From the IMG/VR virus record IMGVR_UViG_3300044491_001809, positions 1 through 36,731 of that record: DNA of 36,731 bases; one strand, given 5' to 3'. Numbering within the stretch: position 1 is the stretch's first letter; every line of letters begins with the position of its first letter. Positions 5,569 to 30,710 of this stretch are shown here, in pieces. Under the pieces are notes generated by a model. The model worked only from the letters and a program-made list of their open reading frames with translations, was not told where the DNA came from and did not search any database. The translations under genes were made by a program, and so were the position numbers. The stretch comes from a virus.

Positions 5569-6483
5569 TTATAATCTCGCTAATCTAATTAAGGTTGCGG
5601 CCAAGTTAATCTCCGGATCAGAAACTAATGTATGATCCACAAGTCCTTGCTTAATAATTAGGATTGCACTTTCTTGCTTTTCTTCATCACCAAACAGATC
5701 AATGTTGTCATACAACCATTTGTATATATCTTCGATCTCTTCTGGTCTTGCTTGCGAACAGACTAGTTTACGTGCTTGTCCTATCTTGCCTGCTTTAAAC
5801 AATTCAACCATTTCAATCTTATAGTCAGCATCACCTGCGTCTGCTTTAGATGGCGGTACTAATGCACCGTCAACGCAATTCATTTGCACCATGTTAATAC
5901 ATTTACGCAAATCAGGATACGTTGCTTTTACATAAGTGTCTAGGATATCCAAGTCTGGAGTAACACCTTCTGTAAGAACAATTTCTGCAACTCGTGCAGT
6001 AAATTCTGTTTGGTCAATACGTTCAATATGAAAGCCTTGACACCTGCTGTGTAGTGCAGGAATAATTCTGTTTGGATAGTTACAAGTAAGAATAAAACGT
6101 GCAGTAGTATGATACTCTTCCATCACACCACGTAATGCCGCTTGTGCGTTCGGCGACAAGTAATCAGCCTCATCTAATAATACAACCTTAAATGGACCAA
6201 ATGGAATCATTTGTACAAAGTTTACAATCTTATCACGTACATCTTCTACTGAGTTTGTTCTACTAGCATTAATTTCTAACACATCAAGATCGTTAATTTC
6301 TAGTTGATTAAGAAGAATCTTTGCAAGTGTTGTTTTACCAATACCTGCGTTACCACTAAACAACAAATGCGGAATAGTTTTATCTGTAATCCATTGCTTC
6401 ACTTGTTGTTTTTGTGCATCATCTCTAAATACATATCCGTCAACTGTGTTAGGACGATATTTTTCTACCCATAATTCTTTCAT
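5569..6483 (-). CDS. 44: Sliding clamp loader ATPase subunit, T4 gp44 type, 304 aa
   Basis: AAA+ subunit of the clamp loader that opens and loads the T4-type sliding clamp (gp45) at primer ends, working with gp62. Seen: box II-like WVEKYRP at residues 5-11, Walker A GNAGIGKT at 44-51, Walker B LLDEAD at 102-107, sensor-1 region ILTCNYPNRI at 131-140, and the SRC arginine-finger motif at 146-148. These are the hallmarks of RFC small subunits and gp44. Length is normal. gp45 and gp62 are not in this window. Its start overlaps the exonuclease stop by 4 bases. Confidence 0.95.
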   Translation of the reverse strand: MKELWVEKYRPNTVDGYVFRDDAQKQQVKQWITDKTIPHLLFSGNAGIGKTTLAKILLNQLEINDLDVLEINASRTNSVEDVRDKIVNFVQMIPFGPFKVVLLDEADYLSPNAQAALRGVMEEYHTTARFILTCNYPNRIIPALHSRCQGFHIERIDQTEFTARVAEIVLTEGVTPDLDILDTYVKATYPDLRKCINMVQMNCVDGALVPPSKADAGDADYKIEMVELFKAGKIGQARKLVCSQARPEEIEDIYKWLYDNIDLFGDEEKQESAILIIKQGLVDHTLVSDPEINLAATLIRLARL

Positions 6484-7019
6484 TTAGTAACTCCAAAGTG
6501 TTTATATGTCTGTTGTAAGCATTTTGCTTGATAGTAACAGTCTGCTAGTGCATTGTGTAATTGCTCTTGTATTGCTTTACGTGGATCACTAGGCATCATT
6601 GCAAACGCAGTTCTACTATCTCTAATTTGCCAGTAGTTCCACGGACAAGGCTTGCCAACGTTTTTGTATAAGTTCTGTAATATTGCATAATCAAATAAAG
6701 GTCCTTGACACCATAAATAATCAACTCCAACACACCATTTGTTAAGTTGCTTTGTTAAGCTATCCATATTTACTCGCTCATGATCTCCAAAGGCTTCATC
6801 TTGGATTTCTTGCTTTTGTTTACTCCACCATGCTAATGTATTATCGTCTATACTACGACCATATTTTTCTGATTGTTCTTCTACGTCACAACGTAGATAC
6901 AAACCGTGATTGGGTTCAGCATCACTGAACGGATCAAATTTTACTGCACCTAAAGTAATGATAACACTATCAGGTTCGACACCTAGTGTTTCTAAGTCAA
7001 TCATACCATGTATTGCCAT
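6480..7019 (-). CDS. dexA: DexA-like 3'-5' exonuclease (DEDDh), 179 aa
   Basis: DnaQ-fold 3'-5' exonuclease most like T4 DexA. Catalytic residues visible: D8 and E10 (MIDLETLG), D110 (CQGPLFDYAIL), H155 and D160 (HNALAD), giving the DEDDh set. The stretches NTLAWWSKQ and WNYWQIRDSRT match T4 DexA regions (TIEWWKNQ, FWNQRDIRTR). T4 DexA degrades DNA from 3' ends and was linked to host DNA or repair processing. It starts one base after the stop of the 41-aa membrane protein and overlaps gp44, so it belongs to the early operon. Confidence 0.85.
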   Translation of the reverse strand: MAIHGMIDLETLGVEPDSVIITLGAVKFDPFSDAEPNHGLYLRCDVEEQSEKYGRSIDDNTLAWWSKQKQEIQDEAFGDHERVNMDSLTKQLNKWCVGVDYLWCQGPLFDYAILQNLYKNVGKPCPWNYWQIRDSRTAFAMMPSDPRKAIQEQLHNALADCYYQAKCLQQTYKHFGVTK

Positions 7020-7020
7020 A

Positions 7021-7146
7021 CTACATTACTTTCATTAAAATAACTACTTGAACTGCTAATACTACAATCGGCACAATAGTTCTTACAAGTTCCATTATGT
7101 GATTGTATTCATCTAGTTTTCTTTCAAGTTTATTTCTTTTTGCCAT
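7021..7146 (-). CDS. Tiny membrane protein, 41 aa
   Basis: Open frame from an ATG at 7146 with AAAGG upstream. A charged N-terminal helix (MAKRNKLERKLDEYNH) is followed by one hydrophobic segment (about residues 22-38), so it is predicted to be a single-pass inner-membrane protein. The stop lies one base before the dexA start. It is the second gene after the strong promoter at 7341-7369. I cannot assign a family. Confidence 0.65.
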   Translation of the reverse strand: MAKRNKLERKLDEYNHIMELVRTIVPIVVLAVQVVILMKVM

Positions 7147-7147
7147 A

Positions 7148-7312
7148 CTAACCTTTCCTATTTTCTTGGCCCATTGCACTCATAATAAGTAGAATATAAA
7201 GTATAGGCCATGCCCACCCTGTAATATATCCTGTAATATGCAGAGTCATCAATACTACGCCTGTAAGACCAGTAGTACCGATTCCGCTAGTTTGTGGCTT
7301 TGGAAATTTCAT
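7148..7312 (-). CDS. Small membrane protein, 54 aa
   Basis: First gene downstream of the strong sigma70-type promoter at 7341-7369. ATG at 7312, with ATAGGAGTAGC giving a good Shine-Dalgarno. The sequence begins MKFPKPQTSGIGTTG and has a hydrophobic stretch from about residue 16 to 46 broken by Gly/Trp, consistent with one or two membrane passes, then a short charged tail. The stop is one base before the next ATG. Tiny membrane proteins expressed first in T4-like phages can act in superinfection exclusion or host membrane takeover; here that is a guess from position. Confidence 0.68.
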   Translation of the reverse strand: MKFPKPQTSGIGTTGLTGVVLMTLHITGYITGWAWPILYILLIMSAMGQENRKG

Positions 7313-7340
7313 ATGCTACTCCTATAATTAATTTTATTAC

Positions 7341-7369
7341 ATTATAGCGTATTATGAATAGAATGTCAA
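7341..7369 (-). promoter_or_regulatory. Strong sigma70-type promoter (TTGACA-N17-TATAAT)
   Basis: Perfect -35 (7364-7369) and -10 (7341-7346) hexamers with an optimal 17-base spacer on the minus strand. The -35 box overlaps the TGA stop of the HAD gene. It drives the two small membrane proteins and the replication/redox operon that ends with thyX. The bases around the -10 (GCTATAATGTAA) are identical to those of the promoter at 28703-28731. Confidence 0.9.
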
Positions 7370-7938
7370 CCTGTTTTGGTAAGAATTATGTTAAAGATAT
7401 CTTCCCATGTATCAGCTCTTTCAATGCCTTCATGCTCGAAATCTTTGTTATATGGGTGTGTAATTAGAATAGGTTTGTGGCCAGCTTCTAAGCCTGCAAT
7501 AGCATTTTGTGGTTTATCTTCAATCCACCAATGCCCAGGCGCCCAATTTTTTAAATGCTCGTCTTTGTCACTGCCTGTAGCAATACAAGTACATTCAGTA
7601 ATAACTTTACCAAATAGCATCTCTAAATTATATTTGCGTAGATATCCTGCATATATATCTTCGCTTTGGCTTGTTAAACATTCAAAAGTATAGCCTTCAT
7701 CTTCAAAACGTTCTAACCATTTTACTGCACCTGGAATAGGTTTAAGATATCCCATCCAAGCACTTTCGTTAAATCTGTTTGTGAGAGAGTCTGATAGTGC
7801 TTGCTCTATTCCAAAGCGTGTGCTTTGTTTATAGACACCTTCTTTTTTTACTTCATAGCCTTTGGAATTCATCCATTTGGTAAACGCTGGCTCCCATTCT
7901 AATAGGACACCGTCTACGTCAGTCAATATTGGTAACAA
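7366..7938 (-). CDS. HAD-superfamily phosphatase, about 190 aa
   Basis: Haloacid dehalogenase-type hydrolase. Motif I is LTDVDGVLLEWE right at the N-terminus, with the two aspartates of DxDG; motif II region LTSQSED; and a late WWIEDKPQNAIAGLEAGHKP that fits motif IV (acidic residues plus the nucleotide-phosphatase-like pattern). Similar phage proteins are often called 5'(3')-deoxyribonucleotidases, but the substrate is not shown. The start is uncertain: the frame is open from a GTG at 7989 and an ATG at 7980, both deep inside mazG, while a TTG at 7938 lies one base after the mazG stop and places motif I at the expected position, so I prefer it. Confidence 0.8.
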   Translation of the reverse strand: MLPILTDVDGVLLEWEPAFTKWMNSKGYEVKKEGVYKQSTRFGIEQALSDSLTNRFNESAWMGYLKPIPGAVKWLERFEDEGYTFECLTSQSEDIYAGYLRKYNLEMLFGKVITECTCIATGSDKDEHLKNWAPGHWWIEDKPQNAIAGLEAGHKPILITHPYNKDFEHEGIERADTWEDIFNIILTKTG

Positions 7939-8383: not shown

Positions 8384-8483
8384 CTTCCGCTTGCATTATT
8401 TTATAACGCATTTGGACATCTTCTGTGATATGATAGACTGCGTCTAACTTTCTTAATTTTGCCTTCAGTCCATTAGTGGACAA
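8337..8483 (-). CDS. Small charged helical protein, about 48 aa
   Basis: The open frame extends to 8531, but no ATG exists; a TTG at 8483 lies at the end of the co-chaperonin gene and gives a 48-residue product rich in Lys, Glu and Asp that is predicted almost wholly helical (LKAKLRKLDAVYHITEDVQM onward). No family is recognised. The gene sits between the gp31-like gene and mazG, overlapping both ends. Coding is supported by its conserved place in a gapless gene string and by the helix-friendly composition, but the start is uncertain. Confidence 0.5.
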   Translation of the reverse strand: MSTNGLKAKLRKLDAVYHITEDVQMRYKIMQAEDEIKHELKERDQEIE

Positions 8484-8910
8484 AGTCTTCAGGTCTAGCT
8501 TTATCGGAGTGGAAGTCAATTTCTTCTCCAATTCTTAAATCATTATCAGGTGCTTGATCACTCCAACCAATTACACTTTCAGCTTCAACCATTCTAATTG
8601 TAATTGGTTCGCCTGCTAATGTAATTTCAAGTCCTCTAGTCCAACGACCGTGTTCAACTAGGATCCAATCACCTATTTCGTATGGATCTTTGTTGTCTGG
8701 ACCTTTTGAATGTACTTGTGCCCAACGTGGGTAGATACCTCTAGTTTCGCCATCATCACTTCGGATAATAATACCACCTTTAGTAGTCTGTTCACCGAAG
8801 TGCATGTTGTGTACTAATACTCTGTTTTTGATTGGACGGATTGTATCAGCAATAATTGTGCCTTGCACACCTTTCTTGCCTGCCGCCATTGCTTCGTAAT
8901 CAAAACTCAT
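8473..8910 (-). CDS. 31: GroES-like co-chaperonin, T4 gp31-related, 145 aa
   Basis: Predicted co-chaperonin that caps host GroEL; T4 gp31 replaces GroES to fold the major capsid protein. The core IRPIKNRVLVHNM (24-36) resembles the GroES opening RPLxDRVLV, followed by GEQTTKGGIII, the mobile loop that contacts GroEL, and a later DWILVEHGRWTRGLEI that fits the VGDxVLF / G strand region. It is longer than GroES because of N- and C-terminal extensions. It overlaps the 131-aa gene by one base (TAATG). Confidence 0.8.
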   Translation of the reverse strand: MSFDYEAMAAGKKGVQGTIIADTIRPIKNRVLVHNMHFGEQTTKGGIIIRSDDGETRGIYPRWAQVHSKGPDNKDPYEIGDWILVEHGRWTRGLEITLAGEPITIRMVEAESVIGWSDQAPDNDLRIGEEIDFHSDKARPEDFVH

Positions 8911-9331: not shown

Positions 9332-9895
9332 TTATCTCAAGAACTCTCTCCAATCCAGTTCAAACTGGATTGAATCAATCTTATGTACACCAATTAAATA
9401 TAGCACATAACTTGCCACACTTGATCCTCTACCTACACCCCATACAATGTTATTCTCACGCATAAAGTCTACAAGATATATCATATACTGTAGTAACGGA
9501 TACATACCACGATACTGATATTCAGTAAGTTCTTCAGTTACTCTGATCCATTCATACGTATGTGTATCACGTAAAGTAACAGGATCATCTATTTGATATT
9601 TCTCCATTAACTTTGCTTCAAGCCATTTGTTAGGATTAATTTCTTTATACTTCTGAGGCATAAACCAATCGCTTTGGCATACACCGTCAAATGTTTTTTC
9701 GTCTACATCTAGTGGAATATATTTTTGCAATGGAGACATACCTTGTTCTTCCATTACTGTATTAAATTTGTCTATATCATCATTGGCGTCACAGAGAACT
9801 ACATGACACTTGTCGATATTACCACTATAGATCATATCAACTAGATCACGATTTGTAAATCTCGGGATTCCTAGCTTGTCTGTTTTCATTAGCAT
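9332..9895 (-). CDS. Stand-alone DNA polymerase III alpha-like fragment, 187 aa
   Basis: The C-terminal ~70 residues match the region of bacterial DnaE that joins the PHP domain to the palm: EYQYRGMYPLLQYMIYLVDF, then VGRGSSVASYVLYLIG with VHKIDSIQFELDWREFLR, parallel to DnaE VGPGRGSAAGSLVAYxLxITxIDPLxxxLLFERFLN. The protein stops exactly there, before the PDFDxDF catalytic aspartates, so it cannot polymerise DNA. The N-terminal half has no obvious PHP metal residues. The next gene starts with its own strong RBS, so this does not look like a recent frameshift. It may bind or mimic host Pol III, or be a structural relic. A promoter-like element with a palindromic spacer lies just upstream. Confidence 0.75.
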   Translation of the reverse strand: MLMKTDKLGIPRFTNRDLVDMIYSGNIDKCHVVLCDANDDIDKFNTVMEEQGMSPLQKYIPLDVDEKTFDGVCQSDWFMPQKYKEINPNKWLEAKLMEKYQIDDPVTLRDTHTYEWIRVTEELTEYQYRGMYPLLQYMIYLVDFMRENNIVWGVGRGSSVASYVLYLIGVHKIDSIQFELDWREFLR

Positions 9896-10787: not shown

Positions 10788-13745
10788 TTATACATTGAAT
10801 TGGTAATTTGCGAACGGAACATATTGTTCATTACTATTACCATCTGTACTATCGATATTGTATCTTTCAATTTCAATATCTAGTTGTTTAAAGTTAAAGT
10901 TACTATTATTAATATTTAGAATTATACTATCAGCTTCGCCTGGTCTACAGTAGCATAGTGGTACTGCTAGTTTAAAGCCTAGTTCTGCTTGTCCTACTGT
11001 TTGTGAAGTACGCATCCACAGTGGATAAAACTCTCTTAGATTTGCACCTATTGCTCTAATTCTATCTCTCATATTTGTAATATTACTAATATATTTTCTT
11101 TGATCTTTACTATCACTTATTTTAATAGCATTACTATCCATTTTGATTGTGTTAGTCTGTGGACGTAATCTTAATGTATCTGAACTTATGCTACTGTCAA
11201 TACTTTGACTGCTAACTATTGTTCCGTCTTGTAGTTCAACAGTAATACTGCCTCCTGGGTTGAAGCTTACTGGACCAAGTCTTGTAAAGATTGCAAGTGA
11301 TCCTGATGAAGCAGGACTATTACCATCACCACCTCTAAGTCCTAAGTCAAAGAATCCTTGACCTGTGCCTACTCCAGTATTATCATCAGTTACACTAAAT
11401 TGAACTTGATCTGTTGTAATTTTATTTTGGGTAGATATAGTAAAGTCTACTTTTGTCTTGCCTTTACCAGCATCAGGCTCTGCAGGATCAATAACATCTA
11501 CGTAAATTACTTCATAAACTGTATCGTTACTTCCTGGATTTTTTGCTACTGCTTTTTTAACAGCGCCTAGTTTATATTTTTTTCTTTTATGATTTTTAGC
11601 TACTGCCGCAACAAATTCTGCTATAGATTTAGTTTCAATACCAGCATAGGCTAACATTTTGATTTGAGGTTGTAAACCAAAACTAACATCGTTTGGTCTG
11701 TAAATACTGCCTGGTGTAAAGATAGTAGGATCTGATATAAAGTTTCTAAAAGAATTTCTTTGTGTTTGTTTTAACATAGGAACCATTGATATACTACTGT
11801 AAAGAGTATCATCAGGATCAGTTGTTGTAATAGTGAATGACCTAGTTGTAGCACTAAATTGGAATTGATCTTGTGCTTTAACTGTAAATGTATAACTTCT
11901 ATCAATAGTTGTTGTAGCACCATCAAATGTTGTTTGTGTTGTAGTTTTATCTATAGTTGTAAGCCCAGGCTTGCCTGTCGAACCAAACTGATTAATCTTA
12001 CCTTGTAACTGTCCGTCAATAGCAAGTGTAAGTCCGGGTGGTAACTTTCCTGAATCCAATGTATATAGCACAACAGCATTAGGCACACTACTTGTAGCAC
12101 TAACATTTAGTGTACTAACAAAGTTAGCTCTAAGATTTCCTAGTGTAGATGCTGTATTCCATGTAATTGCACTTTCGATTTCACCTAGTAGTTTAACTGT
12201 AAATTCTTTATCTTTTGTTACTGTTGGGTTTACACTTGATGTTGTTCTTTTATCAAAACTGTAAAATGACATAGTAACAACTTTATTTGCAACCGTTGCA
12301 CCAAATGCATCATAAGTTTTGTAACCTACATTGGAAATGGTTCCTAAAAACTTTCCTCGTAGAAAGTCATCATTACCTACTTCAATTTTAGTTACAGATT
12401 TGTCAGTTGATGTAGATGTTACTCTACCATTTTCTATAGTCCATACACTTTTACCTATAACATCAATTGCTTTATAACTTTTGTTATCTCCTGAATCTGC
12501 TTCAGTAATAGGAATTTCATTGAAAACAATCCAACCTGTTGCTCCTAATCCATTAAACAAGCTATCAGCAAAATCTGTAAATGCTATATTATCTGCACCA
12601 CTCCAAGTTTGTCCAACACCTATATTGTTTGCAAAAGATTGGGTAGTTGTACTAGCTGTTGATCCTAATTGTCTTAGTGCTTCTATTGTAAATTTATATT
12701 CTGTAGTAACTGCTGGCTGATAAGGAATACGTCCTGCAATCTCGCCAGTCGTACTATCAATACTCATACCAGGAGGTAAAGCACTTGTAGATCCGTCTGC
12801 GTTTGATTTTTTAACTGTAAAACTAATTATACCTTGATTACTTGTAGGATCATAGACATCTAAGAATAGTGTTACATAATTATTAGCTCTTCGATAACCT
12901 AAGTCGCTTGGTGTTAACCAAACAGGTGCTCTTAGATATGTATTATCTGCTGTAAACAATCCTGTAGCAAGTTGCATAATAGTATTATCTGATCTTAGGA
13001 AATCGTCTCCTACAAGATAAATTTGAAATTTGCGTTCTGCTATAGTAATGCCGTCACTAGCACTAACAGTAAATTCGTAATATCTATTTAATTTTTTAGG
13101 ACTTTGTGTAGGAACTGCATAATCGTAAAATGTTGTATCGTAATAATAACTTTCAAAACCATTTGCACTCTTTACTCCAAAGTCGAATGGGAAAGTACCG
13201 TATACATTACTATCAAAATAACCTGTTGATGATCGTTTTTCTAATGCTAATATTGGTTCAACTACGCCAGTAAGTTTACCTGTAGTTCTTCCTAGTTCGA
13301 TTCCTGGCGGAAGCTCTCCATCATTATCCCCAATAAAATATTCTATATTATCGCCTGCAGGCAAGTCAGGATCAATTACCTGTAACTGAAAATCTACAGG
13401 ACTGCTATCTAGTATATAAAATCTATTGTTAGGACCAAGTGGTAGTGGACCTTCTGCTGTTACCCATGTTGGAGCATCAGCACCATTAATTTTTAATTTA
13501 AGCGTTACATCTTCTTTAATATTGTCTTTGATTGCTCTTAATACAAAAGTAAATGTTCTTAATCTTTTAACTTCAAATGGTGTACCTACTAAACTATCGT
13601 TTTCAATACGAAGTCCTCCGGGTATTTTTCCGCTAATAAGTGAAATTGTTGTGCCAGTAACAATAGGCAAAGCAATAGATTGTGTAATACTTTCTTGGTA
13701 TGTACCTAAATCATGCCCTGTGTTAACGGTCCATAAGTGCGCCAT
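10788..13745 (-). CDS. Large virion structural protein with putative Ig (He_PIG-like) repeats, 985 aa
   Basis: No signal peptide or membrane segment. Repeated stretches of the type LPPGhxhxxxTGxhxGxh are visible: GELPPGIELGRTTGKLTGVV, SALPPGMSIDSTTGEIAGRI, and GKLPPGLTLAIDGQLQGKI; the N-terminus has a degenerate copy (GKIPGGLRIENDSLVGTP). This is the putative Ig/cadherin-like fold found in phage and bacterial surface proteins. Linkers are Thr/Ser/Asp-rich. The C-terminal ~300 residues differ and carry KKYKLGAVKKAVAKNPG and an end rich in Asn/Tyr. Located among fibre genes with its own late octamer (13765-13772), it is likely a tail, neck or fibre component for surface binding. Confidence 0.8.
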   Translation of the reverse strand: MAHLWTVNTGHDLGTYQESITQSIALPIVTGTTISLISGKIPGGLRIENDSLVGTPFEVKRLRTFTFVLRAIKDNIKEDVTLKLKINGADAPTWVTAEGPLPLGPNNRFYILDSSPVDFQLQVIDPDLPAGDNIEYFIGDNDGELPPGIELGRTTGKLTGVVEPILALEKRSSTGYFDSNVYGTFPFDFGVKSANGFESYYYDTTFYDYAVPTQSPKKLNRYYEFTVSASDGITIAERKFQIYLVGDDFLRSDNTIMQLATGLFTADNTYLRAPVWLTPSDLGYRRANNYVTLFLDVYDPTSNQGIISFTVKKSNADGSTSALPPGMSIDSTTGEIAGRIPYQPAVTTEYKFTIEALRQLGSTASTTTQSFANNIGVGQTWSGADNIAFTDFADSLFNGLGATGWIVFNEIPITEADSGDNKSYKAIDVIGKSVWTIENGRVTSTSTDKSVTKIEVGNDDFLRGKFLGTISNVGYKTYDAFGATVANKVVTMSFYSFDKRTTSSVNPTVTKDKEFTVKLLGEIESAITWNTASTLGNLRANFVSTLNVSATSSVPNAVVLYTLDSGKLPPGLTLAIDGQLQGKINQFGSTGKPGLTTIDKTTTQTTFDGATTTIDRSYTFTVKAQDQFQFSATTRSFTITTTDPDDTLYSSISMVPMLKQTQRNSFRNFISDPTIFTPGSIYRPNDVSFGLQPQIKMLAYAGIETKSIAEFVAAVAKNHKRKKYKLGAVKKAVAKNPGSNDTVYEVIYVDVIDPAEPDAGKGKTKVDFTISTQNKITTDQVQFSVTDDNTGVGTGQGFFDLGLRGGDGNSPASSGSLAIFTRLGPVSFNPGGSITVELQDGTIVSSQSIDSSISSDTLRLRPQTNTIKMDSNAIKISDSKDQRKYISNITNMRDRIRAIGANLREFYPLWMRTSQTVGQAELGFKLAVPLCYCRPGEADSIILNINNSNFNFKQLDIEIERYNIDSTDGNSNEQYVPFANYQFNV

Positions 13746-13764
13746 GTATAAACTCCTATATACA

Positions 13765-13772
13765 TATTTATG
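13765..13772 (-). promoter_or_regulatory. Late promoter, CATAAATA
   Basis: Minus-strand octamer 19 bases upstream of the ATG at 13745; it overlaps the stop of the preceding 234-aa fibre gene. A TATAGGAG Shine-Dalgarno follows. Confidence 0.55.
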
Positions 13773-14472
13773 CTATAGGGAGTGTTCCCATATCTGCTGT
13801 AGGTAAAGTTGATCCTGCAAATGCTGGAGAGGATGGATCAGCTTCATACTCAATATCTAAATTATGTGCTAGATATTCTAATGTGTTTGTGAATTCTGAT
13901 GGTACAGCAAGTCCTTGATCAAAAGTTAAATATTGTTGTAGTCCGTCAAATGTTCTAATATCTAAACCATGTACATTACCGGTCATATTACCTACGTTAG
14001 TAATGTTATTAGTTTGTGCGTTTAATGTTGCTGTAAGTTTAGGATCTGTATCAGTTTGTAAAGAAGTTACACTACTAATTGTAAGTGTTGTTCCGTTTAA
14101 ATTTGTTGTAGTAGTTCCACCACCTGCAAGTGTTAGTGAATTACCGTTAGAGTCTAGTGTAATATTATTATTGTCTGCAAATATCTGTACACTTGGCAGT
14201 CCTGTTGCTGTACTATTAATTGTAATAGCGTTAGCATCAGCCGCGAGTGATATTGCCGTACCTGCTACAATTTTTTTAAACTGTAGTTCAGTGCCACTTA
14301 TTTGACCAAACACACCTTCGCCGGCACTACCTAGATTAGCTACAGTAGTTGATTCTGTACTTCTAGCGTTAAGTTCTGTAAAGTTATTGTTTACTTTTAC
14401 AAACGCTTCGCGTAGATCATCACCTGTACCGTCGTTTGCAATAGTTCCAATATTGATAGTTTGTATTGCCAT
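13768..14472 (-). CDS. Tail fibre-like protein with conserved N-terminal module, 234 aa
   Basis: Starts MAIQTINIGTIANDGTGDDL, followed by REAFVKVNNNFTEL: the clearest copy of the N-terminal module shared with the 151-aa and 2400-aa proteins. The remainder is Thr/Asn/Leu-rich with short beta repeats (for example DNNNITLDSNGNSLTLAGGG), as in trimeric fibres. The C-terminal 70 residues contain a more globular section ending TADMGTLPIA. It has a late octamer (14490-14497) and AGGAG before the ATG. A role in host attachment is inferred. Confidence 0.78.
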   Translation of the reverse strand: MAIQTINIGTIANDGTGDDLREAFVKVNNNFTELNARSTESTTVANLGSAGEGVFGQISGTELQFKKIVAGTAISLAADANAITINSTATGLPSVQIFADNNNITLDSNGNSLTLAGGGTTTTNLNGTTLTISSVTSLQTDTDPKLTATLNAQTNNITNVGNMTGNVHGLDIRTFDGLQQYLTFDQGLAVPSEFTNTLEYLAHNLDIEYEADPSSPAFAGSTLPTADMGTLPIA

Positions 14473-14489: not shown

Positions 14490-14497
14490 TATTTATC
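14490..14497 (-). promoter_or_regulatory. Late promoter, GATAAATA
   Basis: Minus-strand octamer 17 bases upstream of the ATG at 14472. It overlaps the end of the subtilase gene and is followed by TATAGGAG. Confidence 0.55.
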
Positions 14498-16997
14498 GCT
14501 TCTTGAGTCCTACCACATTGCTTGTAAACGGCTTTTGCTGATTATATCTGTTAAACAACATTCTATTTTCAGCACCACATATGTCTGTGGTATCACCGTA
14601 GTTGGTAAGATTATTTTCGTCTTTTAAAATTGCTTTTGCATCTTTTTGTATTTTAGATAGTAATTGTGCTGGTGTAAGTTCAGGTGATGCTTGTAAGTAT
14701 AATGCTCCTACTCCGCAAACTTGTGGACTTGCCATACTTGTTCCACTGATATTAGTTTGCTTAAACCCACCACCATCAAAATAGGCAGGTGCACCAAATT
14801 TGTTTGTTGTACTAGTTGCACTAACAATATCCTCACCAGCCGCAAAGATATTTACTGCTGGGCCTGTTGTACTAAATCCTGTTTTTCTTTCTATATTTCC
14901 TGCTTCATTTTCTGGTGTACTGTCTATACACCCTACCATAAATGCATTGTCACTGTAAGGTGAACTTCCTCTATGGTAATAATTGTTTGATGAAGTTGAG
15001 AATACAATGTTACCATAATCGTCTCCAGTACTCAAATCAGCTTTAAAACTGTTGTTACCAGCGGCAATACAAATGTGTACGCCTGCTGAAATACATTCTT
15101 CTACATCTGTATCTACACTTGCAACTCTTACTGGATATCTATAACTTCCATTTGAATAGTAAGGATAGTATCCATAAGTGTCTCTCATGTGTGTACTATT
15201 ACCAAAGCTACCATCATTACCACTACTATAAGTGGTACCTCTATAAACTATACTTGTAATATTATTGATAGAACTACCAACACTACTACTATATCCCCAA
15301 CTAGCATTTACAATAGTTGGACGCTTTAAACCTGTAATAGGATCTGCGTCTTTATTATTGTGCCATTGTTTTATACAATCGTATACATTTGATATACTAA
15401 TACCAGTGCCACTATCACCACTGCCTTCTAATCCTGCTACTTTGACAGAAAAGATTCTTGCTTTTGTACCCCAACCAAAGTTCTTACCTACTGCTGTTCC
15501 GCCACAATGTGTTCCGTGTCCGTCATAGTCTCTATAGTGATTACCAGGTTGTGTAAAACCTAATCCGCTTTCGTCTCCCCAATGGATTAAGTGTACTCTG
15601 TTTGCTCCACTACTTGCTACATATTCTAAACTACCTTGATCATTTCCTTTGAACATACTTTTCAATGTTGTAAAACTTGGCTTATTTAAAACCGGCATAA
15701 AGTATTTTTTGAAAAGTTGATAACCCTGAGGATTGTTTTTTCTAATACCCTGAGGTGTACGCATATCATCAGTCCATTCTGGAGCAAGAGTTCCGCCACT
15801 CCAAAACTCGCTCATATCCCACATACCCCAGTTAAGCAAATACATGTATTCCTTGTAAGCAAGTTCTGCATAATCTGTATTTGTATCCCAACTAGATGCA
15901 TAATCAGATGGATCAAATTTGCCTGCATCAATTGCTTCTTTCATTGCAAGATGTAGTTCAGTTGTTTTCCAACTGTCATCTCCATAATTTGATGCGGCCC
16001 AATTTAACGCTTGGGCACTTCCTGGTGTTGCACCTGGCAATCCAAATAAATGTATTGTATGAAACAAGTGTTCCATAACTTCTTCAATTTCACTATCGCT
16101 TGTAGTTGGTTGAGGTCCACTTGCGTTGTTATACCATACCATATCGTTAGTCATATGTGAATTTAGAAATGCTTGATAGCCTGTGTAGCTATTAATATTT
16201 TCATCAAGTAACCAGTTAGGTGAATAACTTGAACCTGCACTATTACCAATTCTTTGTGCAGTTGGAAATCCTGCATGGAATGTACCAGCATCACCTTTAA
16301 GAGTAGCAATAAGTCTTTTTTGATGTGTAAGGTTAATATGTGTACCTGTAGGATCAATTAATAGTTTTACAACTTGACCAACCTTGCGTGTAAAGTTGTC
16401 TGATACTGCTGACTGTCCACCTACTGTACCTGCTTGTACAATCTTTAATCCATGTACTGTCATTGACTGTGGAAAGATTTCACTGTTTGTATTGTCACTT
16501 GCTATATCTGTACTAACATATTCTGCTGTGTCATCCATAAAAAACTCTGGGTGATCAACTTGTAGTCCACTATCTTGTATAATAACATCAACACCTTGAC
16601 CGTCCATTGCGTATGTGCGGTTAGTTGTTGTAGAATTACTTGAGTATTTTTGTTCAAAGAAACTGTGTCTAATTTTACCCCAGTCACGATAGTTACCGCT
16701 ATCACTAGTTGTTTTATCAAAGTCAGCAATTTGCACTGCTTGTATACCAATTTCAATATCTGGATTCTGATCAGGTGGAAGATCTACATCTAAAACTCTA
16801 CTGTCGTTTTTTAGAGTTTCTACTTCTTCAGTAGTTAACATGTAGTGTGTATTTCTTTGTGAACCTAATCTAGCGTCTGCTACTATAACTGAACGTCCAG
16901 GAATTTCTCCTGCGCCAGTTGATGCAATCATTTCTTGATTAAATGCATTGTAGTCGACACCTTCTTTAAGAGTTACAATATACTCTTTCTCACTCAT
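14493..16997 (-). CDS. Subtilisin-family (S8) serine protease with large insertion, 834 aa
   Basis: The catalytic triad is complete: Asp142 (VIIQDSGLQVDHPEF), His494 (DGHGTHCGGTAVG) and Ser754 (GTSMASPQVCGVG), with oxyanion Asn648 (IAAGNNS). The first ~75 residues (EYIVTLKEGVDYNAF onward, ending DSRVLDVD) resemble an I9-type propeptide. Asp and His are separated by about 350 residues, roughly ten times the spacing in subtilisin, owing to an inserted domain at about 170-470. No signal peptide. The gene lies between two fibre genes, with an AGGGGAC Shine-Dalgarno, so it is probably a virion-associated or maturation protease that cleaves fibre or capsid proteins or host surface layers. The target is unknown. 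Confidence 0.9.
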   Translation of the reverse strand: MSEKEYIVTLKEGVDYNAFNQEMIASTGAGEIPGRSVIVADARLGSQRNTHYMLTTEEVETLKNDSRVLDVDLPPDQNPDIEIGIQAVQIADFDKTTSDSGNYRDWGKIRHSFFEQKYSSNSTTTNRTYAMDGQGVDVIIQDSGLQVDHPEFFMDDTAEYVSTDIASDNTNSEIFPQSMTVHGLKIVQAGTVGGQSAVSDNFTRKVGQVVKLLIDPTGTHINLTHQKRLIATLKGDAGTFHAGFPTAQRIGNSAGSSYSPNWLLDENINSYTGYQAFLNSHMTNDMVWYNNASGPQPTTSDSEIEEVMEHLFHTIHLFGLPGATPGSAQALNWAASNYGDDSWKTTELHLAMKEAIDAGKFDPSDYASSWDTNTDYAELAYKEYMYLLNWGMWDMSEFWSGGTLAPEWTDDMRTPQGIRKNNPQGYQLFKKYFMPVLNKPSFTTLKSMFKGNDQGSLEYVASSGANRVHLIHWGDESGLGFTQPGNHYRDYDGHGTHCGGTAVGKNFGWGTKARIFSVKVAGLEGSGDSGTGISISNVYDCIKQWHNNKDADPITGLKRPTIVNASWGYSSSVGSSINNITSIVYRGTTYSSGNDGSFGNSTHMRDTYGYYPYYSNGSYRYPVRVASVDTDVEECISAGVHICIAAGNNSFKADLSTGDDYGNIVFSTSSNNYYHRGSSPYSDNAFMVGCIDSTPENEAGNIERKTGFSTTGPAVNIFAAGEDIVSATSTTNKFGAPAYFDGGGFKQTNISGTSMASPQVCGVGALYLQASPELTPAQLLSKIQKDAKAILKDENNLTNYGDTTDICGAENRMLFNRYNQQKPFTSNVVGLKKR

Positions 16998-17009: not shown

Positions 17010-18920
17010 TTAATGTAAGTCAACCCAACCGCCGTTCGCATATCCTTGGAACTTATTAGTTGTTGAATTATAAATTGTATCTCCGTTAACTGCTGTAAGA
17101 GCATTACGTTCTACAGTTGAAAACGATGCTAGTCTAAATGGACTTTGTGTTACTTTGACAGCATCTTCTGCAACAAGCTCAATTGAACCTGCACTAGTAA
17201 TTTGTGGAGTACCTGTGCCTGTGCCTTCAAATGTTTCTGCTTGTAGTGATCCATTTACAGTCATATCGTTTTGTACTGTAAGGTCACTGCTCATTGTTAC
17301 TGCTGGAGTAATTGTAATACCGCTTGAATCATCTGTATCAATTACACTTGTACTAAATGTAAAGTTACCAACTGACTCACCGCCTGTAGCGTTAGTCCAA
17401 ATACCACCTACGTATTTTATTACTTGGTTTGCTTGTGGACTGTTAATACTTACATCTGACAATGTAGTAATACTAGTTGTTGATAGGTCTGATAGATATC
17501 CTGCACCGTTTGTAAGTTGATTATTATTTGTTGGAATAGTAGGCTTGTTGGTAATTGTACTACTTGTATAATCAATACTAACACCTGTTAATGCACTAAA
17601 CGGAATTGCTGTTATATTAGCACCACTACCGTAAATATTATTAGCATATAAATTTTGGAAATAGTTATTACTGGCACCTAAACTATATGTATTAGCAGTA
17701 AAGGGGTTAATATTACCGAAACTTACACTATCACTTACTTCTGATCCGCCTGCTAGTATTTGACTAAGTGTAATACCTGTTAAACTTGAACCACTACCAA
17801 TAAATGAAACAGCATTTACATCACCTGCTACTGTAAGTTTGTGCGAAGGTGTACTAGTAAATATACCAACACGTTTTGTTCCTGTATCAATTTTAATTGC
17901 TGTTTCAACACCTGTTAATGGTGTTACTTTAATATCTAAATCTTGTTCGTTAACTGTGCTTTCAATAATTGCGGCATTGTCTACACGTAGTTTAATATTA
18001 TTGTTTGTACCTACAGTTATACCAGTATCTGAGTTAAATGTTACACTACCGTTTTGTGTATAACTTTGATTTGCACTGATAGAATCAGTAATGCCATAAC
18101 CTGATAACGTAGTAGGTAATCCAACTAATGAACTAAATTGGCTATCAAATAATGTAGGACGATTTGTTAAATTTGTGTAGTCTAAAAAGTAAGGACTATC
18201 AAATCCGTCAAGTGTATCTGCGTTTAATCCGCCACCACCTGATGTAGCATCGTTTGCTGGTGCCCATCTAAGTCCGTCCCACTTTAGTACTTGCCCTGGT
18301 GTTGGTGGAGTACCTTGTGTATCAACATCTGATAAGTCACTTATATCAGTAACTAAATTTGGTTTGTCTGTAAGATTATTGTAACTGCCAGTTGTTGCTA
18401 CTGTGGCTAAACTAGGTGTTCCAACAATTTCGCTATAGTTAATAAAACTGTTTACCCATGCTCCGTTATTATCTTGTCCTGCGTTTGCATTCCATTTAAG
18501 TACGTTGCTTGATGCTAATCCAGTCAAGTCAGTAACAATGCCACTGCCTCCTGCACCACCACCGCCACCTGTTGCGGCAATAGTAATAGTCGCGTTTAAG
18601 TCATCGTATGTAATATCAATTCCACTACCTTCTCTTAGGATAGCATTTACTCTGTCATCAACTCTTTCATTTGTAAAGTATTGATTAGTACCTTCTGGTA
18701 AGTCTGTTGTAGTTGCGGCTACAGTTGGTTTGTCTGCTAAGTCATTCCAACTGCCACTAAAAGGATTATAGTTAACACCTGCAAGTGTAAGTCCTGTTGC
18801 AGAAATCATTCCTGCTCCAGTAATACCTGAGCCTGTTAAGTCTAAATTATCACCTATTGGTAATTCTTTTAGTTTGTTGCTATCGTCTCTATCAACTATG
18901 AGTGGTATTCTGTTTGCCAT
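17010..18920 (-). CDS. Tail fibre protein, 636 aa
   Basis: Highly repetitive beta-rich fibre. Repeats of the type YxNLTxKPxL occur (SWNDLADKPTV, YNNLTDKPNL, YTNLTNRPTLF, ITNKPTI), together with a typical fibre motif LNADTLDGFDSPYFLDYTN, LPTTLSGYGITDS, poly-Gly linkers, and TSTPSHKLTVAGDVNAVSF near residue 350. The C-terminal end (SFSTVERNALTAVNGDTIYN, then GYANGGWVDLH) is a capping motif often seen at the tip of marine phage fibres. AAGGAAAAG precedes the ATG. It probably takes part in receptor binding. Confidence 0.85.
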   Translation of the reverse strand: MANRIPLIVDRDDSNKLKELPIGDNLDLTGSGITGAGMISATGLTLAGVNYNPFSGSWNDLADKPTVAATTTDLPEGTNQYFTNERVDDRVNAILREGSGIDITYDDLNATITIAATGGGGGAGGSGIVTDLTGLASSNVLKWNANAGQDNNGAWVNSFINYSEIVGTPSLATVATTGSYNNLTDKPNLVTDISDLSDVDTQGTPPTPGQVLKWDGLRWAPANDATSGGGGLNADTLDGFDSPYFLDYTNLTNRPTLFDSQFSSLVGLPTTLSGYGITDSISANQSYTQNGSVTFNSDTGITVGTNNNIKLRVDNAAIIESTVNEQDLDIKVTPLTGVETAIKIDTGTKRVGIFTSTPSHKLTVAGDVNAVSFIGSGSSLTGITLSQILAGGSEVSDSVSFGNINPFTANTYSLGASNNYFQNLYANNIYGSGANITAIPFSALTGVSIDYTSSTITNKPTIPTNNNQLTNGAGYLSDLSTTSITTLSDVSINSPQANQVIKYVGGIWTNATGGESVGNFTFSTSVIDTDDSSGITITPAVTMSSDLTVQNDMTVNGSLQAETFEGTGTGTPQITSAGSIELVAEDAVKVTQSPFRLASFSTVERNALTAVNGDTIYNSTTNKFQGYANGGWVDLH

Positions 18921-18930
18921 ATTCTTTTCC

Positions 18931-19386
18931 TTATAATGCCGCTATTCTAGTTTTGAAGTCTGCAAAGTCGGCACTTGCCGCTACCTCTGTTTTTAGTGTT
19001 GTTAATGTAATTGTTTCTGCTTGTAATGCACTTGCCGCTAAAGTACCTTGTGCAGAAGTTGCCGCATCAGTAATTCCGTAACCAGCTAATGTAGTTGGCT
19101 TACTTGTAAGTGAGGCAAACGTCTGTGCTGGAATAGTTAAGTTTGTAAGATTACTTCCGTTTAACGCTGGAAGTGTACCAACTAATACTGCCGCTGTAAT
19201 TGTTCCGTTAACAGCATCAACTAATAGTGTCGAATCATCAGCGAATACAGATCCGTTAATATCTCTATTTTTATTTGTAACAGCAAGCTCTGCAAAGTTA
19301 GCGTTAATTTTTGTAAATGCAGTTCTTAATGGATCACCATCACCTTTGTTTGCACTAGTTCCAATATTAATTACTTGAATAGCCAT
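18931..19386 (-). CDS. Short fibre-like protein with shared N-terminal module, 151 aa
   Basis: Begins MAIQVINIGTSANKGDGDPL then RTAFTKINANFAEL, the same module as the 234-aa and 2400-aa proteins. Its middle has a GTLPALNGSNLTNLTIPAQT segment and SLTSKPTTLAGYGITDAATS, matching the repeat type of the 636-aa fibre (LPTTLSGYGITDS). It ends with a Leu/Ala-rich helix. It overlaps the 2400-aa gene by one base (TAATG), so the two are translationally coupled. It may be a connector or small fibre subunit. Confidence 0.75.
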   Translation of the reverse strand: MAIQVINIGTSANKGDGDPLRTAFTKINANFAELAVTNKNRDINGSVFADDSTLLVDAVNGTITAAVLVGTLPALNGSNLTNLTIPAQTFASLTSKPTTLAGYGITDAATSAQGTLAASALQAETITLTTLKTEVAASADFADFKTRIAAL

Positions 19387-26591: not shown

Positions 26592-26915
26592 TTAAAATCC
26601 TACGCTTTCACCACAACCACAGCTACTTGTGCTTGCAGGGTTTTTAATATCAAAGTATGAACCGAATAGTTCTTTTTTATAATCAATAGTTGAGCCTAGT
26701 AAGTACATGATACTAGTACTGTCTATAATAAACTTACCATTTAGTAGGTCTATAACTTCATCGCCTTCTTCTACGTCATCTGCCATTACCCAGTTGTACT
26801 TGAATCCTGCACATCCACCACCTTGCATTTGTAGTTTAATTGCTGTTTTGTCGTTATCTTTGAGTAAGTTAGTCATCTGTTCTTTAGCCGAATCTGTTAA
26901 AAATACCACGCTCAT
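26592..26915 (-). CDS. A-type iron-sulfur carrier (IscA/HesB-like), 107 aa
   Basis: Small Fe-S cluster assembly or transfer protein. The three conserved cysteines are at 35 (QGGGCAGFKY) and 99/101 (SSCGCGES), as in IscA/ErpA/SufA. Length is normal. It is preceded by AGGAGAC and a CATAAATA late octamer (26932-26939), and is the first gene before the giant fibre gene, so it is expressed with the virion genes. It may help mature phage or host Fe-S proteins, such as the phage's 7Fe ferredoxin, though the timing (late versus early) does not match neatly. A virion role has not been excluded. Confidence 0.93.
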   Translation of the reverse strand: MSVVFLTDSAKEQMTNLLKDNDKTAIKLQMQGGGCAGFKYNWVMADDVEEGDEVIDLLNGKFIIDSTSIMYLLGSTIDYKKELFGSYFDIKNPASTSSCGCGESVGF

Positions 26916-30263: not shown

Positions 30264-30710
30264 TTAGGCCTCGTAGATTGCTGAATTAGCACCATGCTCT
30301 GCACACTCAACACTCACACAATAACAACGATTGTCTGTTGCTTCACGTACAAGTTTGTCTGCAAAGTTAAATGCGTGTTCGGCAAACTTCTCTGCACCTA
30401 CACCATCAAACTCTCTTACTTCGCACAAGTCTTTGTCTTGTAAATCATAAAAGTCTTGTTTGTGTGGATCATTAATATCAACACAAGTCTTGTGATCAAA
30501 ACTATCTTCTAACCAAGCCTTCAAAGGCTTCAGTCCACCAAAGTCGACGGCCCAGTTTTTATTATCTAATTTCTCACACCCAAATGTAAATTTAAATTGC
30601 AAACTATAACCATGTAGTAAATGGCAATGCGAATGGTCTGCATTAGGTTGTCTGAACACTGCTGATAAGCCTATGTTGTGTCCATATGTTTTTGTACTAT
30701 AATAACTCAT
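30264..30710 (-). CDS. QueD/6-pyruvoyl-tetrahydropterin synthase-like protein, 148 aa
   Basis: T-fold protein of the QueD/PTPS family. Cys29 aligns with the catalytic Cys and H33 with the first His of the LHGH motif (SHCHLLHGYSLQ). FDHKT and VECAEHGANSAIYE match the later family segments, and WAVDFGGLK matches the D-F-G motif. Two of the three usual zinc histidines are replaced: Phe19 (SAVFRQP in place of xAAHRxP) and Tyr35 (HGY instead of HGH). A subfamily with this look exists in bacteria as far as I recall. Role could be preQ0/7-deazaguanine or pterin chemistry, or something altered. SD is TATAGGAG. Confidence 0.8.
   Translation of the reverse strand: MSYYSTKTYGHNIGLSAVFRQPNADHSHCHLLHGYSLQFKFTFGCEKLDNKNWAVDFGGLKPLKAWLEDSFDHKTCVDINDPHKQDFYDLQDKDLCEVREFDGVGAEKFAEHAFNFADKLVREATDNRCYCVSVECAEHGANSAIYEA

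What the first reader, a model, noticed from the sequence alone, without database searches (positions are those of the whole stretch)
14493..16997. Subtilisin-family protease inside the fibre block with a ~350-residue insertion between Asp and His
The triad and oxyanion Asn are all present, so the enzyme should be active, but the inserted domain between Asp142 and His494 is about ten times the normal spacing. Position between fibre genes suggests a virion-borne protease. It could process fibres, digest host surface proteins, or be exposed at a tail tip. An I9-like propeptide suggests self-activation.
Basis: partly seen in the sequence, partly recalled or inferred. Interest (0 to 1): 0.6.

Follow-up and report, generated by a model that had tools for sequence, protein, structure and literature searches.

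The report
Phage protease hosting a mobile domain
A sea virus of bacteria carries a protein-cutting enzyme of an ordinary kind, but an undescribed 300-residue domain sits inside it; that domain has jumped, one copy per virus genome, into many unrelated tail and baseplate proteins and also exists as a surface protein of marine bacteria, so it probably does a job at the host cell surface that nobody has named yet.

Summary
Observation confirmed, interpretation partly supported. Window 14493-16997 (minus strand) encodes an 834-aa proteinase-K-type subtilase with intact Asp142, His494, Asn648 and Ser754; the predicted fold matches subtilases at Z 32. Asp-His spacing is 352. Most relatives have about 45, and the empty site is clean, so about 307 residues are inserted. 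The insert is a separate domain, not a protease elaboration. It has no model in Pfam, NCBIfam or PHROGs and no PDB sequence relative. It recurs in at least 297 viral contig stretches, in subtilases and in unrelated virion-type proteins: a YHYH baseplate protein (Synechococcus phage S-RIM2; empty site in S-BM1), wedge-like and PIG/gp10-like proteins, a tail fibre. Copies in unrelated genes share about 945 bp at 90-96% identity with sharp borders. Each of 11 phage records that carry it holds one copy. Standalone copies are lipoprotein-like genes of marine bacteria. Trees show repeated gain or loss in the subtilase and exchange between carriers. The fold resembles zincin metallopeptidases (best Z 7.6, below the safe limit), with ExxEHxxH...E in place of HExxH. 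Best guess: a mobile, surface-displayed, metal-binding hydrolase-like domain used at adsorption. Virion location and activity are untested.

The parts
14493..16997 (-). subtilase (S8) with nested domain, 834 aa
   Evidence: fold match to proteinase-K-type subtilases Z 32, 271 residues, rmsd 2.5
16773..16997 (-). I9-like propeptide, residues 1-75
   Evidence: beta-alpha-beta-beta-alpha-beta in the model; Pfam I9 only sub-threshold in relatives
16572..16574 (-). catalytic Asp142
15621..16541 (-). inserted mobile domain, residues about 153-459
   Evidence: empty sites in L146-L160 and others and L210; relatives in 297 viral contig stretches
16041..16085 (-). putative metal-site helix EEVMEHLFHTIHLFG, residues 305-319, invariant ExxEHxxH
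   Evidence: one helix in the model
15849..15851 (-). invariant Glu383, candidate further metal ligand
15516..15518 (-). catalytic His494
15054..15056 (-). oxyanion-hole Asn648
14736..14738 (-). catalytic Ser754
13768..14472 (-). neighbour: protein with T4 gp9/gp10-type N-terminus, 234 aa
   Evidence: Pfam T4_gp9_10_N E 8e-5 (below cut-off), phrog_677 E 1.6e-9
10788..13745 (-). neighbour: PIG-domain gp10-like protein, 985 aa; its family carries the mobile domain in L081 and L020/L104, not here
17010..18920 (-). neighbour: fibre-like protein, 636 aa
   Evidence: weak tail-fibre PHROG hits
18931..19386 (-). neighbour: small protein with T4 gp9/10-like start, 151 aa
19386..26588 (-). neighbour: 2400-aa tail fibre protein
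   Evidence: phrog_9851 E 4e-46

Best explanation
The gene encodes a self-activating proteinase-K-type subtilase that is built into or onto the baseplate/tail of a T4-like marine phage, and it serves as one of several carriers for a mobile, single-copy, about 300-residue domain. The domain has a zincin-like fold with an unusual conserved ExxEHxxH...E site, probably binds a metal, and most likely acts on a cell-surface or extracellular substrate when the phage meets its host. Because the domain works wherever it is displayed, it is carried in surface loops or ends of different baseplate, fibre and protease proteins. SHOWN: subtilase, intact and conserved triad, clean empty sites, recurrence in unrelated genes, one copy per record, incongruent trees, purifying selection, standalone bacterial copies. 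INFERRED: virion location, protease activation, metal binding, enzymatic action, role in adsorption.
For: Triad and fold. Empty versus filled site in S8. Domain in a YHYH baseplate protein of S-RIM2, absent from the 89% identical S-BM1 protein as one 319-aa gap. Domain in other virion-type proteins. DNA copies 90-96% identical over about 945 bp in non-homologous genes with sharp borders. One copy in each of 11 records. Uncoupled from S8 in one genome (G309). Repeated gain or loss in the S8 tree (7 changes, at least 6 forced by starred branches). Domain tree mixes carriers. Standalone bacterial genes with lipoprotein-like starts. Every listed row of the structural second look is a zincin-type chain. 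Invariant ExxEHxxH and Glu383 even at about 25% identity. Low dN/dS. YHYH domains predicted elsewhere to be zinc-dependent tail hydrolases: PMC7824862.
Against: The zincin match is weak: Foldseek best E 0.93 and VIA Z 7.6, under the tool's own limit of 8; there is no HExxH and no profile-level link to the one zincin family tried. The distance from H310 to E383 (73 residues) is longer than in the gluzincins I recall. No virion proteomics or enzyme data. S-BM1 is recorded on Synechococcus WH7803 without this copy, so the domain is not essential for that host.
Confidence: 0.5

Rival explanations
1. The inserted domain is a non-enzymatic receptor- or polymer-binding domain that kept an old metal-binding fold for stability, and is swapped between virion proteins like phage Ig-like domains.
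For: No canonical protease motif; occurrence in fibres and baseplate proteins next to other binding domains; the same region holds YHYH and lectin domains read as host recognition in PMC7029224.
Against: Five acidic and histidine residues are invariant down to about 25% identity, more than a scaffold usually needs; one copy per record rather than tandem repeats.
Confidence: 0.35
2. The insert is an exosite that sets substrate choice or access for this subtilase.
For: It lies in the loop between catalytic Asp and His and its insertion site is the same in distant subtilase clades.
Against: Close relatives have intact triads without it at the same site; the same domain sits in many proteins without a protease; an insert-less S8 and a separate copy coexist in one genome.
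Confidence: 0.1
3. The subtilase is not a virion part but a late intracellular processing enzyme that trims fibres or baseplate proteins during assembly.
For: Encoded between baseplate and fibre genes with no secretion signal visible; phage maturation proteases are common (established knowledge).
Against: The nested domain is otherwise found in virion-type proteins and surface-type bacterial lipoproteins, which argues for an exposed place.
Confidence: 0.25
4. The insert is an intein or another self-removing or parasitic element.
For: In-frame insertion with clean empty sites and presence in unrelated genes.
Against: No intein, Hint or homing domain among Pfam matches up to E 10; the same sequence exists as standalone lipoprotein-like genes; it occurs as a terminal as well as an internal part (L035, L019, L186).
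Confidence: 0.02

Closest known systems
Subtilase family S8A, proteinase K type (aqualysin I, proteinase K)
   Same: triad, oxyanion Asn, whole fold (Z 32, about 30% identity over 271 residues), probable I9-like propeptide
   Different: about 307-aa foreign domain between Asp and His; no secretion signal seen; phage baseplate gene neighbourhood
Cyanophage subtilases of cluster T4-GC_292 / phrog_9158 (S-H38, S-CREM1, P-SSM2, ACG-2014h)
   Same: same family and the same baseplate or tail neighbourhood
   Different: S-H38, S-CREM1 and P-SSM2 lack the insert
S-RIM2 1713-aa baseplate protein (phrog_708, YHYH domain)
   Same: carries the same mobile domain, 47% identical
   Different: domain nested in a YHYH-type protein, not a protease; S-BM1 homologue lacks it
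Zincin metallopeptidases (PPEP/M34, Mx1, M9, M30, M4)
   Same: overall fold by structural second look, Z 4-7.6; helix with conserved His/Glu and a later Glu-bearing helix
   Different: no HExxH; ExxEHxxH instead; no sequence-level similarity found
Promiscuous phage virion domains such as Ig-like and BACON domains
   Same: one domain type spread over virion proteins (Ig-like: from memory; BACON in crAssphage: title and abstract of PMC6949934)
   Different: here about 300 aa, single copy, enzyme-like, and nested inside the fold of an enzyme with intact catalytic residues
Subtilases with large insertions (PA domain in lactocepin, Asp-His insert in tripeptidyl peptidase II)
   Same: precedent for large domains inside a subtilase (from memory, not tested)
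   Different: unrelated domain; in those families the insert is a fixed family feature as far as I recall

Membership tests
Subtilase S8A | Asp/His/Ser triad plus oxyanion Asn | tested here: met
   D142, H494, N648, S754 present and invariant in relatives
Subtilase S8A | subtilisin fold | tested here: met
   VIA Z 32, 271 residues, rmsd 2.5; Foldseek E 5e-12
Subtilase S8A | I9 propeptide | tested here: inconclusive
   pattern in the model; Pfam I9 below cut-off in two relatives, none in the window protein
Subtilase S8A | proteolytic activity and autoprocessing | not testable with these tools
   needs purified protein
Zincin metallopeptidase (inserted domain) | HExxH motif | tested here: not met
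   alignments show ExxEHxxH throughout
Zincin metallopeptidase (inserted domain) | zincin fold | tested here: inconclusive
   all listed VIA rows are zincin-type chains but best Z 7.6, and Foldseek has nothing significant
Zincin metallopeptidase (inserted domain) | sequence-profile relation to a known zincin family | tested here: inconclusive
   no Pfam, NCBIfam or PDB sequence hit; hhalign to a small PF15890 alignment gave nothing; other families not tried
Intein | intein/Hint domain | tested here: not met
   no such Pfam match up to E 10 for the domain
Promiscuous phage virion domain | the same domain in non-homologous virion-type proteins | tested here: met
Promiscuous phage virion domain | present in the virion | not testable with these tools
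   needs proteomics or cryo-EM

The most novel reading that the evidence does not exclude
A new family of mobile, single-copy enzymatic domains exists that marine T4-like phages move, as an in-frame DNA cassette of about 0.95 kb, between surface loops of unrelated virion proteins, subtilases included. It uses a non-canonical ExxEHxxH...E metal site in a zincin-like fold to process a host surface or extracellular polymer, and was exchanged with surface lipoproteins of marine bacteria.
Probability: 0.35. Interest if true: 0.8.

Novelty: new variant of a known kind. Interest (0 to 1): 0.62.

Why it matters
It reveals a widespread, uncatalogued domain in marine phage virion-type proteins, with natural plus/minus pairs among cultured cyanophages (S-RIM2 and S-BM1, both recorded on Synechococcus WH7803). 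That makes the question of what extra surface activity phages carry on their baseplates directly testable. It also shows a clear case of in-frame domain mobility between unrelated genes, including insertion inside an enzyme whose catalytic residues stay intact.

Tried and rejected
Nucleotide search of the region in phage records: no match. Module alone against Pfam, NCBIfam, PHROGs and PDB sequences: nothing meaningful. Foldseek of the module against PDB and BFVD: nothing at E below 0.001. Profile comparison with PF15890: no alignment at the motif helix; that alignment was small. Inverted-zincin (HxxEH, M16) idea: the 73-residue spacing from H310 to E383 resembles what I recall for M16, but no M16 chain appeared in the fold list; the list cannot exclude it. 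Intein, parasitic element and assembly error rejected: the domain recurs in hundreds of contigs and in cultured phages, under purifying selection. Literature on virion-borne phage subtilases: nothing found in the library held; the S-CREM2 virion proteome paper names no peptidase and could not be tied to this family. Model coordinates are not given by the tools, so clustering of the conserved residues could not be measured.

Full report
OBSERVATION. The ORF at 14493-16997 is real, on the minus strand, 834 aa. Pfam finds Peptidase_S8 (E 7.5e-23) and PHROGs finds phrog_9158 (E 9e-79), a family without assigned function. They are invariant in every insert-bearing subtilase relative aligned. An AlphaFold model from 27 relatives (pLDDT 79.9, pTM 0.84) matches proteinase-K-type subtilases at Z 32 over 271 residues, spanning model residues 102-829 with the insert skipped. 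The N-terminal 75 residues show the I9 beta-alpha-beta-beta-alpha-beta order; Pfam I9 is seen only below cut-off in two relatives.

THE INSERT IS A SEPARATE DOMAIN. tblastn splits the protein: residues around 1-160 and 494-815 match cyanophage subtilases without an insert, and residues 172-450 match, at 47% identity and E 2e-70, the middle of a 1713-aa baseplate protein of S-RIM2. A scan of viral contigs for subtilase relatives found hundreds. Among the best 80, most have an Asp-His spacing of 45 or close to it and no insert, while carriers have about 352-360. Insert-less L146 is about as similar to the window protein in its catalytic part as the carrier L033 (both 69-70%). The junction is clean: HPEF, then the insert, then the segment leading to SRV. 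L210 shows the empty site inside an otherwise carrier-only clade.

IT SITS IN UNRELATED VIRION-TYPE GENES. 297 stretches in viral contigs encode the domain (the 80 best were read). Besides subtilases it is found in giant baseplate-type proteins, proteins weakly matching a baseplate-wedge model, PIG/gp10-like proteins, a tail fibre, the N-terminus of a 1079-aa ORF, the C-terminus of an intact subtilase (L186) and the C-terminus of a subtilase with Asp to Glu (L019). In S-RIM2 it lies between the two halves of a YHYH region (515-536 and 1037-1069; Pfam reports two YHYH stretches). The homologue in S-BM1, 89% identical outside the gap, lacks it as one 319-aa / 957-bp gap. Copies in L086, L095, L097, L102 and L103, which lie in different proteins, share about 945 bp at 90-96% identity with sharp edges. 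Each of 11 records with the domain, up to 221 kb, has exactly one copy, and 11 other searched records have none. One genome (G309) holds an insert-less subtilase and, far away, the domain in a wedge-like gene.

EVOLUTION. On a tree of the subtilase without the insert, presence needs 7 changes, at least 6 by well-supported branches. The domain tree mixes carriers: the L156 subtilase copy is sister to the S-RIM2 baseplate copy, and the sister subtilases L037 and L199 carry distant copies. Both trees are quick searches. Between the window and L033 the insert has lower dS (0.63) than the flanks (1.5-1.9), which fits later exchange of the insert. dN/dS is 0.11-0.24 in insert and main catalytic part.

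BACTERIAL COPIES. Standalone genes occur in MAGs of Flavobacteriaceae, Actinomycetota, Opitutaceae and gammaproteobacteria. Several start with a lipoprotein-like signal by eye, and two Flavobacteriaceae copies carry a Flg_new_2 domain. One lies in a 1.13-Mb contig among glutamine synthetase-like and GTP cyclohydrolase-like genes, and that genome has two copies. Of 299 genomes drawn from the same family, 10 match, some at only about 25% identity.

WHAT THE DOMAIN MAY DO. Its own model is good (pLDDT 91.2, pTM 0.91). Foldseek finds no significant match. In the structural second look all listed rows are zincin-type chains, led by PPEP-2 at Z 7.6. There is no HExxH; instead E306, E309, H310, H313 and E383 are invariant even in distant copies. 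By helix geometry the first four lie on one face (inference). I read this as a metal site, either a hydrolase or a retained scaffold. The neighbouring YHYH domain was independently predicted to be a zinc-dependent tail hydrolase (PMC7824862), and the same region in pelagimyophages is called a host recognition cluster (PMC7029224).

VERDICT. The subtilase is a new member of a known phage family and by itself ordinary. The unusual thing is the mobile domain: new to the libraries searched, widespread, single copy, with natural plus/minus pairs in cultured cyanophages. What it works like: promiscuous phage virion domains (for mobility) and zincins (for fold). It is not filed as a zincin peptidase, because HExxH was tested and not met.

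Noticed in passing
L019:3738-6212 and 6206-7843: Two subtilases side by side; the first has Asp replaced by Glu and carries the mobile domain at its C-terminus, the second is intact without insert.
   Followed up: partly
L020:8060-8085: The copy in a PIG/gp10-like gene has two in-frame stops near its start, while the otherwise similar L081 copy is open; sequencing error or a decaying copy.
   Followed up: no
L186:ORF of 1361 aa: Intact insert-less subtilase with the mobile domain far C-terminal (residues 791-1080).
   Followed up: partly
window 26592-26915: Fe-S_biosyn (HesB/IscA-like) gene next to the giant tail fibre gene.
   Followed up: no
window 9332-9895: 187-aa protein matching the DNA polymerase III alpha NTPase domain (PF07733, E 2e-9): a short fragment-like form.
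   Followed up: no
window 8473-8910: Reads like a GroES-type co-chaperonin (by eye).
   Followed up: no
window 30264-30710 and 1816-2877: QueD-like and PhoH-like genes.
   Followed up: no
L127 and L128: Short lipoprotein-like bacterial proteins about 25% identical to the domain keep only its second half and the ExxEHxxH...E core; they look like an older, simpler branch.
   Followed up: partly
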